A DNA stretch of 64,000 nt from Actinomycetes bacterium (GTDB lineage: Bacteria; Actinomycetota; Thermoleophilia; RBG-16-64-13): NCBI GenBank assembly GCA_024637095.1, contig JAGXFV010000018.1, positions 1 through 64,000 of the forward strand. The letters are read 5' to 3'. Shown one piece after another: positions 54,328 to 63,402 of this stretch; position 1 is the first letter of the stretch, and every line of letters starts with the position of its first letter. The translations under genes were made by a program, and so were the position numbers. The notes beneath the pieces were generated by a model. That model saw nothing but the letters and a program-made list of their open reading frames with translations, searched no databases and was not told the DNA's origin.

Positions 54328-54714
54328 GTGAATCCCAAGAACCTGAAGTACCACAAGGAGCACGACTGGGCACGTATCGAGGGTGAGACTGCGGTATTCG
54401 GTGTCACCGACTATGCTCAGGAGCAGCTCGGGGACATCGTCTATGTGGAGCTTCCCGAGGAAGGTACCGAGGTGACGGCGGGGAGTTCCTTCGCCGAGAT
54501 AGAGTCGGTCAAGGCGGTTTCCGATGTCATTGCCCCGCTTAGCGGGACCATCGTGGAGATCAATGAGGAAGTGGTCGACGCGCCGGAGACCATAAATGAG
54601 AGCCCCTACGAAAACGGTTGGCTGGTGAAGGTCAAGGTCAGCGAGCCGGGCGAAGCGGACGATCTGATGAGCTCTGACGAATACGAGGGGATGCTCGCCC
54701 AAGAAGAGGAGTAG
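54328..54714 (+). CDS. gcvH: Glycine cleavage system H protein
   Basis: YHKEHDWARIEGETAVFGVTDYAQEQLGDIVYVELPEEGTEVTAGSSFAEIESVKAVSDVIAPLSG (lipoyl-lysine ESVKA). Confidence 0.96.
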   Translation: MNPKNLKYHKEHDWARIEGETAVFGVTDYAQEQLGDIVYVELPEEGTEVTAGSSFAEIESVKAVSDVIAPLSGTIVEINEEVVDAPETINESPYENGWLVKVKVSEPGEADDLMSSDEYEGMLAQEEE

Positions 54715-54743
54715 ACCGGCGAGCCATCGAGCGGATTGGCGAC

Positions 54744-54781
54744 GAGGAGCGGGCCGTAGCCTGCTCCTCGCGTCTTTTTAT
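54744..54781 (+). terminator. Terminator after gcvH
   Basis: GACGAGGAGC...GCTCCTCG-CGTC hairpin followed by T5. Confidence 0.7.
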
Positions 54782-54833
54782 AGGTTATCGAGCTGAACCT
54801 CGACCTCGACTTTAAGGTTTGGACAAGAGGAGC

Positions 54834-54839
54834 TATACT
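54834..54839 (+). promoter_or_regulatory. Putative -10 element (TATACT), leaderless arrangement
   Basis: TATACT 6 nt upstream of ATG 54846. Confidence 0.5.
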
Positions 54840-54845
54840 AGAGCC

Positions 54846-55133
54846 ATGGACGCGCAAGGCCACACAGACTTCGACCTTCTGGTAAACATTCAGTCCTACG
54901 GCGACGAAGAGTTGAAGCAGCTCTCCGAATCCCTCGAGAAAGACGAGAGGGAGATCTCGAAGCGGCGAAGGCTTATCCATGGGCAGCTCGACATTCTGCG
55001 CGCGGAGATGGTGCGCCGGCTTCGGGACAAGCACCGTTCGGGCGAGCCGCTTTTTGGGGAAGGCGACGTCGATCGCTTGAGTTCGATCCTCAGCTCTCCG
55101 AAACGCGATCCTGCGGACGGCTCGTCGGAGTAG
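54846..55133 (+). CDS. RsiG-like small anti-sigma factor candidate
   Basis: Helical EKDEREISKRRRLIHGQLDILRAE contains E-x3-S-x2-R-x3-H-x3-D (E34,S38,R41,H45,D49), one substitution from the RsiG c-di-GMP motif E-x3-S-x2-R-x3-Q-x3-D. Confidence 0.65.
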   Translation: MDAQGHTDFDLLVNIQSYGDEELKQLSESLEKDEREISKRRRLIHGQLDILRAEMVRRLRDKHRSGEPLFGEGDVDRLSSILSSPKRDPADGSSE

Positions 55134-55175: not shown

Positions 55176-55430
55176 GTGGGGGACCTGATAGAACGGATGA
55201 TCAGGGCCATCCATCAGCTCTTTGAGGAATTTGGGGTACACGTCCGGGAGGATCGGGTCCTCCGCTATGTGGCCGGCGAGCTCGACAAGGGCCGTCGGTT
55301 CGATGAGATTCTCGCCGATCCCTATGTGGTGAACAATACCGACGAGCAGGGCCGCAACCGCCTCCTCGAAAAGCCGGAGACCCTGCGCGCGGTGGAAGAG
55401 CAGCTGCTCTCGATGCGGCGCCGTCCTTAG
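55176..55430 (+). CDS. Conserved-looking hypothetical protein (84 aa)
   Basis: GTG start behind GGGGAGG; helical, acidic/basic; between RsiG-like and FHA genes. Confidence 0.65.
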   Translation: MGDLIERMIRAIHQLFEEFGVHVREDRVLRYVAGELDKGRRFDEILADPYVVNNTDEQGRNRLLEKPETLRAVEEQLLSMRRRP

Positions 55431-55458: not shown

Positions 55459-55923
55459 ATGCGCAACTGTCCCAAGTGTGGCTTCGTCAACAACGACGAG
55501 GCGAACTTCTGCCAGCAGTGCGGAAGCCGCCTGGTAGAGAAGGACCTCTCCGAGACCACGATCACGTACGCTCCCGGCCTCGACGAGGAAGCAGACGAAT
55601 CCACGGCGGCCGAAGCGGTTCACGCCTCACCCGTTCTGGTGATTCGCTCAGGCGGCGGCAGAGAGGGGGAGAAGGCCGTACTCGATACCGAGTTGTTGAC
55701 CATCGGCCGCGATCCCGAGAATCACCTGTTCCTGGACGACGTGACGGTGTCACGGCACCACGCGAGAGTGATCCGCGACGCAGTGGGTTACGTGATCGAG
55801 GACCTCAACAGCCTAAATGGCACCTACGTCAACCGCAAGCGGTTAGAGAGACACCACCTGAGCGACGGTGATGAGTTGCAGATAGGCAAGTTCAAGCTCG
55901 GATTCCTCGAACCGGTGGAGTAG
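55459..55923 (+). CDS. GarA/OdhI-like FHA protein with N-terminal zinc ribbon
   Basis: CPKCGFVNNDEANFCQQCGSRL zinc ribbon; SETTITYAPGL (GarA-type ETT phosphosite); FHA IGRDPENHLFLDDVTVSRHHARV...DLNSLNGTYVNRKRLERHHLSDGDELQIGKFKLGFL. Confidence 0.92.
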   Translation: MRNCPKCGFVNNDEANFCQQCGSRLVEKDLSETTITYAPGLDEEADESTAAEAVHASPVLVIRSGGGREGEKAVLDTELLTIGRDPENHLFLDDVTVSRHHARVIRDAVGYVIEDLNSLNGTYVNRKRLERHHLSDGDELQIGKFKLGFLEPVE

Positions 55924-55926
55924 GGG

Positions 55927-56676
55927 GTGCCCCGCGACTCTGACTCCGGCTCCATTGGGTCTTCGGTGGGCAAGGACCGGAAGGTTCCGGCTGATGACCA
56001 CTACACGATCGGTCGCCTGGTTGGCCTCCTTCAGGAGGAATTCCCGGATCTCAGCATCAGCAAGGTTCGCTATCTGGAAGACCGCCGGCTGATCCAGCCC
56101 GAGCGCACCGAGGGTGGATACCGTCGCTACGGCGGCTCTGACTTGCGCCGGCTACGGACCATCCTGCGCCTGCAAAGGGACGAGTACCTACCCCTCGAGG
56201 TGATCAAAGCGCGGCTGGAGCGGGGAACCGCAGCCACCACGTCGCGTCCACTGGGACCGACCCAGGATTCACGCGAACTCGGCGTCCTGCGGCAGCCCGC
56301 CGAGAGCTTCTCCTGGCATGAGGTCAAAGAGGCGACTGGCGCTGACGACGTCTTCCTTGCACAACTCGCCGATTTCAAATTGATCGCTGCCTCGCCTCGG
56401 ACGTTGGGGGGCGGTCTCCCCGAAACGGACGTCGAGGTCATCCGCATCTGCCAGATTCTGGCGCGTTTTGGGGTGGAGCCTCGGAACCTCCGTCTGCTCA
56501 AATCGTCTGCGGAGCGCGAAGCCGCCTTGCTCGAGCAGGCAGTCACGACCGCATTGCGCTCGCACCACGAGGAGCGCCGCGCGCAAGGTGAGAGGAATCT
56601 GCAGGAGCTCGCCGTCTTGGTCTCTCGCCTGGTCGAACTTCTTCTGTACAAGGAACTGCGGAGGTTGATCGAGTAG
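55927..56676 (+). CDS. MerR-family regulator (FtsR-like)
   Basis: YTIGRLVGLLQEEFPDLSISKVRYLEDRRLIQPERTEGGYRRYGGSDLRRLRTILRLQRDEYLPLEVIK; downstream of the GarA-like gene as in mycobacterial garA-ftsR. Confidence 0.9.
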   Translation: MPRDSDSGSIGSSVGKDRKVPADDHYTIGRLVGLLQEEFPDLSISKVRYLEDRRLIQPERTEGGYRRYGGSDLRRLRTILRLQRDEYLPLEVIKARLERGTAATTSRPLGPTQDSRELGVLRQPAESFSWHEVKEATGADDVFLAQLADFKLIAASPRTLGGGLPETDVEVIRICQILARFGVEPRNLRLLKSSAEREAALLEQAVTTALRSHHEERRAQGERNLQELAVLVSRLVELLLYKELRRLIE

Positions 56677-61307: not shown

Positions 61308-62234
61308 CTAGAAGATCTTTTTCGTGAGGATGGCTTTCAGGCGGTCGAGGGCGCGGGTCTGCTCTCGGGATACAGTCCGTTGGGACATCCCCAACTCGTC
61401 TGCGGCCTCTTGCTGGGTCAACCCTTTGAAGAAGAGGAGATAGAGCAATTTCTTGTGAGCCTCCGAGAGTGCTCCCAGAGCGTCGTAGAGCAAAATCCGG
61501 TCCTCGATGGGTAGATTGAAGTTCTCCGGGCGTAGCGCTTTGATCGCGCCCCGGTCCAGCCCATTGGGCACCTCCGCGCCATTATCCTCAAGGGAATGGA
61601 CGTCTATGGAACCGTAGAAGCGGATCAGCTCCAGAATCCCCTCTTCCTGAACATTGACGGCGTCCGCCAACTCCGACATCGTGGGCGAGCGTCCCTGGTC
61701 GCGCAGAAAATCGCCCTGCACCTGTTGGATACGGTCGTACAGGGACTTCGCCCAGCGAGGCTGCCTGACCAACATGTTGTCTCGGAGGTAGTGCCTTACC
61801 TCGCCCTCGACCAGAGGGAAGGCATAAGTGGAAAAGGCGGTTCCCCGCGTGCCGTCGAACCGCTGCGCCGCCTTCAGCAGACCCATTCGGGCGACCTGGA
61901 ACAGATCTTCGTAGGGTTCCTCGGAGCGGGCGAAGCGTTTGAGGACGTAGTGGCAGATCCGTTCGTTCCGGCACAGGAGAACTTCCAGGCACTGCATCCA
62001 ACCGTGATCCTGATATGCACGGGCCAGCTGCTCGTTGGTGAGGTTCTCGAGGGCTGTCGTGTCCGTCGGATCGATGGCGACTTCGAGACGGGTCCGCCTT
62101 GGCTTGAGCACCGCCCGCTTCGCAAGAACCCCCTCAACCGGCGGCAGAGCACGCACGACCGTGTTTGGCAGTGTCGACAACTGGGCTCTACTCAACGAGC
62201 TGGAAGAGGTTGAAGATAGGCAGGTACATCGCAA
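61308..62234 (-). CDS. RNA polymerase sigma factor, SigB/SigF-like
   Basis: YEDLFQVARMGLLKAAQRFDGTRGTAFSTYAFPLVEGEVRHYLRDNMLVRQPRWAKSLYDRIQQV (region 2/3); LTQQEAADELGMSQRTVSREQTRALDRLK (region 4). Start uncertain, likely shorter than 62234. Confidence 0.9.
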   Translation of the reverse strand: MRCTCLSSTSSSSLSRAQLSTLPNTVVRALPPVEGVLAKRAVLKPRRTRLEVAIDPTDTTALENLTNEQLARAYQDHGWMQCLEVLLCRNERICHYVLKRFARSEEPYEDLFQVARMGLLKAAQRFDGTRGTAFSTYAFPLVEGEVRHYLRDNMLVRQPRWAKSLYDRIQQVQGDFLRDQGRSPTMSELADAVNVQEEGILELIRFYGSIDVHSLEDNGAEVPNGLDRGAIKALRPENFNLPIEDRILLYDALGALSEAHKKLLYLLFFKGLTQQEAADELGMSQRTVSREQTRALDRLKAILTKKIF

Positions 62235-63402
62235 CCACGATCAGGCCCACCAGGCCGCCAATAAGGATCATCATGATCGGTTCTATGATCGAGGTGAGCG
62301 ACTTGACCGAGGAATCCACCTCATCCTCGTAGAAGTCGGCGATCTTGTGCAGCATCGTGTCCAATGCGCCGGTTTCCTCACCGATGGCGATCATCTGGGT
62401 CACCATCGGGGGAAACACCTTGACTCGTTCCAGCGGGCGCGCGATCGACTCCCCGCCCTTGACGTTCTCCTTGACCTCTTCCATGGCGTGTTCGACCACC
62501 CGGTTGCCCGAGGTTTTGCCCGTAATGTCAATCGCCTGCAGGATGGGGACACCTGAGGAGACCAGAGTGGCAAGCGTGCGGCTAAACCGCGCAACCACGA
62601 TCTTCTGAATGATGGGACCAAGCTTCATGGGAAGCTTCAGCTTGATGCGGTCCCACACATTGGTGCCTCTGTCGGAATTCTTGAGCTTCTTCAAGCCATA
62701 AGTGGCCAGGAAGAGCGCGGGGAAGATCACGAACCAGAATGATCGGGTGAAGTTGCTGGCTCCCACCATTATCCGGGTGAGCAGCGGGAGTTGACCGCCC
62801 AGGTCATTGTACATCTCGGCGAAGATCGGGATCACGAAGAGGATCAGGCCGAGCATGACCATCACGGCAAAGACGCCGATAAGGATCGGGTAAGTCATGG
62901 CGGACTTGATCGAGCGGCGCAGGCTGTCATCCTTCTCCAGCTGAGTCGCCAGACGCTCCAGCGTTTGATCGAGCACCCCACCGATCTCGCCGGCACGCAC
63001 CATGCTGACGTACAGGCGATCGAAGGCGACCGGATGGCGCTCGACCGAATCCGAGAGGGGCATGCCCGCCTCGACGTCCTGTCGGACGGCGGCGATGACC
63101 TTACGGAAGCGCTTGTTCTCGGTTTGCTCCTCGAGGATATAGAGCGCCCGCAGCAACGCTAGTCCGGCATTGATCATAGTGGCGAACTGGCGCGAGAACA
63201 CAACCTTGTCGCGCAGCTTGATCTTCGTCATGTTCTCGAGGAGCTCGTTGATGTCCGGGAGCCCCTTCTTCTCGTCGATAGAGAGAACGGTCAACCCTCG
63301 GCGGCGAAGCTCAGCGGAAACCGCCGCTTTGGAGACCCCTTCTATCTGGCCAATGCTCTGTCCGCCCCTCACAGGCCTGGCGGTATAAGTAAAGGTGCTC
63401 AC
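62188..63402 (-). CDS. pilC: Type IV pilus inner-membrane protein PilC (GspF family)
   Basis: FSRQFATMINAGLALLRALYILEEQTENKRFRKVI; MVRAGEIGGVLDQTLERLATQLEKDDSLRRSIKSAMTYP; MIAIGEETGALDTMLHKIADFYEDEVDSSVKSLTSIIEPIMMILIGGLVG. Confidence 0.95.
   Translation of the reverse strand: MSTFTYTARPVRGGQSIGQIEGVSKAAVSAELRRRGLTVLSIDEKKGLPDINELLENMTKIKLRDKVVFSRQFATMINAGLALLRALYILEEQTENKRFRKVIAAVRQDVEAGMPLSDSVERHPVAFDRLYVSMVRAGEIGGVLDQTLERLATQLEKDDSLRRSIKSAMTYPILIGVFAVMVMLGLILFVIPIFAEMYNDLGGQLPLLTRIMVGASNFTRSFWFVIFPALFLATYGLKKLKNSDRGTNVWDRIKLKLPMKLGPIIQKIVVARFSRTLATLVSSGVPILQAIDITGKTSGNRVVEHAMEEVKENVKGGESIARPLERVKVFPPMVTQMIAIGEETGALDTMLHKIADFYEDEVDSSVKSLTSIIEPIMMILIGGLVGLIVVAMYLPIFNLFQLVE

What the first reader, a model, noticed from the sequence alone, without database searches (positions are those of the whole stretch)
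54846..55133. RsiG-like candidate anti-sigma / c-di-GMP sensor with variant motif (Q to H), between gcvH and a garA-like gene
Seen: the 95-aa product has a helical stretch EKDEREISKRRRLIHGQLDILRAE matching E-x3-S-x2-R-x3-[H]-x3-D. Established (from memory): Streptomyces RsiG binds c-di-GMP and sigma WhiG through the repeated motif E-x3-S-x2-R-x3-Q-x3-D, and a single-motif version in Rubrobacter acts as a homodimer. Inference: this is a single-motif, homodimer-type RsiG with Q replaced by H. The gene has its own -10 and looks leaderless, so it may be regulated apart from gcvH.
Basis: partly seen in the sequence, partly recalled or inferred. Interest (0 to 1): 0.7.

Follow-up and report, generated by a model that had tools for sequence, protein, structure and literature searches.

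The report
RsiG-type c-di-GMP anti-sigma factor
This small gene makes a known kind of molecular brake (RsiG) that uses the signal molecule cyclic-di-GMP to hold back a sigma factor (WhiG); the protein and its histidine variant are ordinary for this bacterial class, but its surroundings point to a wider control circuit of surface pili and an undescribed small RNA.

Summary
The 95-aa ORF at 54846-55133 carries E-x3-S-x2-R-x3-H-x3-D once and is a genuine RsiG (Pfam PF22802, 56.8 bits, cut-off 27; best solved matches are Rubrobacter RsiG). (1) Q-to-H is not a new variant: it is the usual residue in this class (47 of 49 single-motif relatives), and published H-type RsiG from Conexibacter binds c-di-GMP. 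(2) The likely target is not the sigma factor at 61308-62234 (SigB/F/G-like, lacks the WhiG contact residues) but a true WhiG elsewhere in the genome. RsiG and WhiG are both present or both absent in 59 of 61 genomes. rsiG has its own, probably leaderless promoter behind a strong gcvH terminator and starts an rsiG-(orf84)-garA-ftsR operon found nearly class-wide, with an upstream sequence resembling the FtsR site. In the family, WhiG-type promoters precede pilA and a conserved, apparently undescribed ~76-nt RNA; pilA often also carries a c-di-GMP riboswitch. In the window's own genome the pilA promoter is weak, whereas the RNA promoter fits well. No binding or expression was tested. Verdict: new member of a known kind; the circuit around it is the interesting part.

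The parts
54846..55133 (+). rsiG: single-motif RsiG, 95 aa
   Evidence: PF22802 56.8 bits; PDB RsiG hits; 56 of 61 related genomes have the family
54945..54992 (+). [quoted passage not shown]
   Evidence: conservation in 49 relatives E 49, S 49, R 49, H 47 (Q 2), D 48
54834..54839 (+). -10 hexamer TATACT, 6 nt before the ATG (leaderless start likely)
   Evidence: sequence; spacing conserved in relatives
54811..54816 (+). -35 element TTTAAG (TTGAAG in relatives), 17-bp spacer
54796..54819 (+). AACCTCGACCTCGACTTTAAGGTT: conserved MerR-type operator-like sequence resembling the published FtsR site AACCCTAAAGTAAAGGTTGAGGGTA
   Evidence: family consensus ACCTCnAnnTnAGnTTGAnGGTT; FtsR motif from PMC6683498. 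The window copy is one of the more diverged (its near-twin L133 differs at 3 of 17 scored positions)
54743..54780 (+). intrinsic terminator between gcvH and rsiG
54328..54714 (+). gcvH (glycine cleavage H protein), upstream neighbour, separate transcription unit likely
   Evidence: ORF and sequence; named from the finding and the sequence, not scanned against Pfam
55176..55430 (+). 84-aa ORF of unknown family, conserved between rsiG and garA in many relatives
   Evidence: no Pfam/NCBIfam hit; synteny
55459..55923 (+). garA/odhI-like (zinc ribbon + FHA)
   Evidence: PF00498 74.4 bits; OdhI model 103.8 bits, below its cut-off
55927..56676 (+). ftsR (MerR-type regulator)
   Evidence: NCBIfam FtsR equivalog NF050798, 200 bits, cut-off 150
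61308..62234 (-). SigB/F/G-like sigma factor; considered and rejected as the main RsiG target
   Evidence: SigBFG 169.9 bits vs FliA/WhiG 78; PDB best hits are SigF-like
62188..63402 (-). pilC-like inner-membrane pilus gene (pilT- and pilB-like genes follow to and past the window end)
   Evidence: PF00482 239.8 bits; intact pilT-like frame across the window end

Best explanation
The gene encodes a single-motif RsiG. Two copies pair as an antiparallel coiled coil; each helix offers one E-S-R-H-D motif, and together they hold a c-di-GMP dimer. [quoted passage not shown] when c-di-GMP falls, WhiG is released. In this family WhiG most likely transcribes a conserved small RNA and, in most relatives, the major pilin gene pilA. 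rsiG is made from its own, probably leaderless promoter, as the first gene of an rsiG-orf84-garA-ftsR operon that FtsR may regulate. Shown here: family membership, motif, intact open frame, a true WhiG with the contact residues, near co-occurrence of the two, gene order, conserved promoter motifs. Inferred from the published Rubrobacter and Conexibacter work: dimerisation, c-di-GMP binding, WhiG binding, sign of regulation. Inferred from motifs alone: FtsR control, WhiG control of pilA and of the RNA.
For: PF22802 hit at twice the cut-off and PDB RsiG hits. Motif residues E34/S38/R41 invariant in 49 relatives, H45 47, D49 48. 52% identity to RsiG from Patulibacter medicamentivorans strain I11, the species whose RsiG co-purified with its WhiG and self-associated (PMC8325347). 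AlphaFold model: short helix 4-13, long helix 20-61 holding the motif, short helix 72-83, the layout described for Rubrobacter RsiG. WhiG over the FliA/WhiG cut-off in 56 of 61 genomes and RsiG in 56 of 61: 55 have both, 4 (one genus) neither, 1 each alone. Own WhiG passes the WhiG equivalog (362 bits, cut-off 343) and keeps K-Y-V-A-G-R, the c-di-GMP contacts K, G, R. Seven GGDEF proteins, no flagellin. WhiG-type promoters before pilA (8 of 14 with at most 1 mismatch, 0.025 expected) and before the RNA.
Against: No biochemical test. G007 has WhiG without a detected RsiG and G051 the reverse, possibly assembly gaps. Foldseek on the monomer model found no RsiG structure; this is a weak test for a lone helix, but it did not support the fold. 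In the window's own genome and its nearest relative the pilA promoter match is poor (2 and 4 mismatches, not aligned with the others). The simple flagellar consensus at up to 2 mismatches is not enriched in the own genome over its reversed control (59 vs 54).
Confidence: 0.88

Rival explanations
1. It is an RsiG whose partner is the nearby SigB/F/G-like sigma factor at 61308-62234 (or another non-WhiG sigma), beside the pilus genes.
For: Same contig, about 6 kb away, next to pilC; a relative of this sigma lies within 7 kb of rsiG in several family members.
Against: SigBFG model 169.9 bits vs FliA/WhiG 78; has H and K at the WhiG c-di-GMP contact positions K and G (sequence); a true WhiG co-occurs with RsiG across the class.
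Confidence: 0.05
2. It is a RsiG relative that no longer senses c-di-GMP (the H substitution breaks stacking) and acts as a constitutive anti-sigma factor or a structural coiled coil.
For: No binding data for this protein; H for Q in the motif.
Against: H is the class norm and all five positions are under strong constraint; H-type Conexibacter RsiG binds c-di-GMP (PMC8325347); the genome has 7 GGDEF proteins.
Confidence: 0.04
3. It is RsiG, but its main role in this lineage is tied to the garA/ftsR operon (central metabolism, division) rather than to pili, with WhiG controlling mainly the small RNA.
For: Nearly class-wide rsiG-garA-ftsR order; FtsR-like operator at the rsiG promoter; in the window's genus only the RNA has a close WhiG-promoter match.
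Against: Most family members have a good WhiG promoter at pilA; Rubrobacter WhiG is linked to type IV pili (PMC8325347); gene order alone does not show function.
Confidence: 0.25

Closest known systems
RsiG of Conexibacter woesei and Patulibacter medicamentivorans (class Thermoleophilia; Schumacher et al. 2021, PMC8325347)
   Same: One motif with the same spacing; H in the Conexibacter protein and in the P. medicamentivorans strain I11 homologue seen here; WhiG in the same genome; rsiG-garA-ftsR neighbourhood also in Patulibacter; 52% identity to the latter.
   Different: Nothing essential found; this lineage adds gcvH upstream and the 84-aa ORF downstream.
RsiG of Rubrobacter radiotolerans (PDB 7lq2, 7lq3, 7lq4)
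   Same: Single motif; predicted short helix - long helix - short helix layout; WhiG partner; link to type IV pili.
   Different: Q instead of H; in Rubrobacter WhiG promoters were mapped at pil and DGC/PDE genes, here a small RNA appears among the best sites.
RsiG of Streptomyces venezuelae (PDB 6pfj, 6pfv)
   Same: Same c-di-GMP motif and same WhiG contact residues.
   Different: Twin-motif monomer that controls sporulation.
FtsR regulon of Corynebacterium and Mycobacterium (PMC6683498)
   Same: garA/odhI-ftsR gene pair; similar DNA motif.
   Different: Here rsiG heads the operon and the motif lies in the rsiG promoter; FtsR binding was not tested.

Membership tests
RsiG (single-motif) | Matches the RsiG family profile | tested here: met
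   PF22802 56.8 bits, cut-off 27
RsiG (single-motif) | E-x3-S-x2-R-x3-[Q/H]-x3-D motif, one copy | tested here: met
RsiG (single-motif) | Motif on a long coiled-coil helix flanked by N- and C-terminal helices | tested here: met
   AlphaFold monomer model, mean pLDDT 79.6, helices 4-13, 20-61, 72-83; the coiled-coil pairing itself was not modelled
RsiG (single-motif) | Structural match to solved RsiG | tested here: inconclusive
   Foldseek on the monomer gave only chance matches; sequence search does match the RsiG structures
RsiG (single-motif) | Cognate WhiG in the genome with the c-di-GMP contact residues K, G, R | tested here: met
   NF004935 WhiG 362 bits, cut-off 343; KYVAGR
RsiG (single-motif) | Homodimerisation | not testable with these tools
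   no multimer prediction offered; inferred from the published single-motif RsiGs
RsiG (single-motif) | c-di-GMP binding and c-di-GMP-dependent WhiG binding | not testable with these tools
   needs ITC, fluorescence polarisation or co-purification
WhiG (for the sigma at 61308-62234) | FliA/WhiG family score over cut-off and K-x3-G-R contacts | tested here: not met
   78 bits, cut-off 189.6; HYVLKR at the contact site

The most novel reading that the evidence does not exclude
In this Thermoleophilia family the RsiG-WhiG switch has as a conserved output an undescribed ~76-nt small RNA (CU-rich hairpin with a UUUCCCAU loop plus terminator, between a cspA-like gene and gatC), besides pilA. c-di-GMP would then act on pili at up to three levels (sigma factor, riboswitch in the pilA leader, MshEN domain of PilB) and on other mRNAs through the small RNA.
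Probability: 0.55. Interest if true: 0.7.

Novelty: new member of a known kind. Interest (0 to 1): 0.45.

Why it matters
The protein fills out the distribution of the ancestral, single-motif form of the only known c-di-GMP-dependent sigma/anti-sigma pair (so described in PMC8325347) in the class Thermoleophilia. Its use lies in the context: conserved WhiG-type promoters give a testable regulon (pilA and a small RNA) in a lineage whose sequenced representative has no flagellin, and the rsiG-garA-ftsR operon with an FtsR-like site suggests a link between a c-di-GMP switch and division or metabolic control. Twin-motif RsiGs at the same chromosomal place in two members of the class suggest that the intragenic duplication proposed for RsiG evolution can be studied inside Thermoleophilia.

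Tried and rejected
The sigma factor at 61308-62234 as partner. Foldseek with the monomer model: only chance matches. Exact flagellar consensus in the own genome: 0 hits; up to 2 mismatches: not above the reversed control. The sharper family-derived pattern was needed (68 vs 13 control hits in 61 genomes); it was derived from pilA sites in the same genomes, so its pilA hits are not independent, whereas the RNA hits were unexpected. First genome-contig query (A1) was too diverse to search. General sigma-70 promoter scan at rsiG found nothing at its threshold; the promoter call rests on conservation between relatives.

Full report
Check of the observation. The ORF 54846-55133 (+) encodes 95 aa, and the quoted stretch is there with E34, S38, R41, H45 and D49 in exact motif spacing. 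The protein is over the curated cut-off of Pfam RsiG (56.8 vs 27 bits), and its four best hits among all PDB sequences are the Rubrobacter and Streptomyces RsiGs. The motif is therefore not a coincidence.

Lineage. The genome (G000, 2.47 Mb, 49 contigs) is unnamed. Its nearest named relative by this gene is the metagenome-assembled Actinomycetota bacterium Soudan_30 (96% identity). The class is thus Thermoleophilia, one of the two classes in which single-motif RsiGs were described (PMC8325347). Two hits in contigs named Anaerosomatales and Coriobacteriia (L162, L194) suggest that the single-motif form also occurs there; this rests on record titles.

The Q-to-H change. Among 49 single-motif proteins gathered without selecting on the motif residues, E, S and R are invariant, H is present in 47, Q in 2, and D in 48. 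The 2021 paper already states that H is frequent and that RsiG of Conexibacter woesei, with H, binds c-di-GMP (Kd 25 uM; 1.7 uM with WhiG). The variant is ordinary. The Patulibacter medicamentivorans homologue (strain I11, L144) is 52% identical to the window protein; the RsiG of that species co-purified with its WhiG and self-associated (PMC8325347).

Partner. The genome has 14 sigma-region-2 genes. One, G000:C38:29773-30453, passes both the FliA/WhiG and the WhiG equivalog cut-offs and keeps K-Y-V-A-G-R, i.e. the K, G and R that contact c-di-GMP in both solved complexes. The window sigma at 61308-62234 is SigB/F/G-like and has H-Y-V-L-K-R there. RsiG and WhiG co-occur: 55 of 61 genomes have both, 4 of one genus lack both, and one has each alone. 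These counts are not independent, because the genomes are related.

Structure. AlphaFold2 on a 30-sequence alignment gives a short helix (4-13), a long helix (20-61) with the motif, and a short helix (72-83), mean pLDDT 79.6, which is the described layout of Rubrobacter RsiG. Foldseek returned nothing useful, as expected for a lone helix; a dimer could not be modelled.

Own transcription unit. A strong intrinsic terminator (54743-54770, dG about -31, z -5.8) ends gcvH. TATACT at 54834-54839 lies 6 nt before the ATG, with TTTAAG 17 bp upstream. In 12 aligned upstream regions the consensus is AcCTC.A..t.Ag.TTGAaGGTT, then TATA.T, usually 6-7 nt before the start codon; three further relatives (L139, L078, L084) lack this arrangement. 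A leaderless start is therefore likely for the window gene. The upstream element resembles the FtsR site reported for Corynebacterium, AACCCTAAAGTAAAGGTTGAGGGTA (PMC6683498). It scores far better than shuffled sequence in the family and also in other Thermoleophilia (mean shuffled best 8.2 mismatches of 17; 61 of 69 observed at 6 or fewer). ftsR itself is three genes downstream, and rsiG-garA-ftsR order is almost universal in the loci examined. garA-ftsR linkage is known across Actinobacteria (PMC6683498); rsiG heading it is, as far as I could find, not described. FtsR binding is an inference from a motif.

What WhiG may control. The genome has no flagellin, 7 GGDEF proteins and type IV pilus genes: a pilB-like gene with an MshEN domain, pilT- and pilC-like genes at the window end, and a prepilin cluster on contig C31. 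pilA (L218:1698) has a c-di-GMP-I-GGC riboswitch in its leader (60.2 bits, gathering 59), as do six relatives' pilA loci, with a seventh of the related c-di-GMP-I type (two of the six, L225 and L226, look identical). In 14 pilA upstream regions the WhiG/flagellar consensus is found with at most 1 mismatch in 8 and at most 2 in 13, against 0.025 and 0.295 expected from shuffles. In the window's genus the match is weak (2 and 4 mismatches, not alignable with the others), so control of pilA by WhiG in this very organism is uncertain.

A small RNA. A pattern drawn from the pilA sites (TAAAGT-N12-TGCCGATA, at most 1 mismatch) hit 68 places in 61 genomes against 13 for the reversed control. Besides pilA, five hits among the loci read, including the best site of the own genome (C18:6664-6639), lie directly before a conserved ~76-nt sequence that folds into a CU-rich hairpin and a terminator. 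A covariance model of the RNA alone (R1, built from those five) found it in 15 of 18 genomes of the family and in none of 43 others. Of 11 copies not used to build the model, 9 score at most 1 mismatch to the WhiG consensus directly upstream; a tenth (L289) does so when the bases cut off by my search window are read by eye, and one (L290) is weak. Paired positions covary more than shuffled or slid controls (33 two-sided cells against 15.9 and at most 9), although that alignment was fitted to the structure. No Rfam family matches it, and a text search for WhiG with small RNA showed nothing relevant among the papers listed. Neither its transcription nor its targets have been tested.

Evolution. 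Two genomes of the class carry twin-motif RsiG at the same chromosomal place (L023/G020 and L095/G030). The paper reported only single-motif forms in Thermoleophilia. G020 also has a second twin paralogue, a second WhiG, and a twin RsiG-like tail on an AMP-binding (acetoacetyl-CoA synthetase-like) ORF.

Verdict. A well-supported single-motif RsiG, a new member of a known kind. The H residue is ordinary and the named sigma factor is not the likely target. The value lies in the circuit around it, which rests on sequence motifs and needs transcript mapping.

Noticed in passing
G000:C18:6664-6564 (-); L272, L278: Conserved ~76-nt small-RNA candidate behind a WhiG-type promoter, between a cspA-like gene and gatC; 15 of 18 family genomes, not in Rfam.
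   Followed up: partly
L218:1540-1614: c-di-GMP-I-GGC riboswitch in the leader of the major prepilin gene pilA; similar riboswitches at several relatives' pilA.
   Followed up: partly
L096:548-2284 (contig C36, just past the window end): PilB-like ATPase with an MshEN (c-di-GMP-binding type) domain.
   Followed up: no
L219, 761-aa ORF (G020:C7): AMP-binding (acetoacetyl-CoA synthetase-like) ORF with a C-terminal twin RsiG-like motif region (PF22802 33.8 bits, cut-off 27); could be a c-di-GMP-responsive enzyme or a joined-frame artefact.
   Followed up: partly
L023 (G020) and L095 (G030): Twin-motif RsiG at the same syntenic place where relatives have single-motif RsiG, within Thermoleophilia.
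   Followed up: partly
window:55176-55430: 84-aa conserved ORF of no known family between rsiG and garA; in L080 it appears fused in frame to RsiG (208-codon open frame).
   Followed up: partly
L162, L194: Single-motif RsiG with garA-ftsR order in contigs named Anaerosomatales and Coriobacteriia, outside the classes reported in 2021.
   Followed up: no
L183: Record titled Bifidobacterium breve carries a Solirubrobacterales-like rsiG locus; the title is probably wrong.
   Followed up: no
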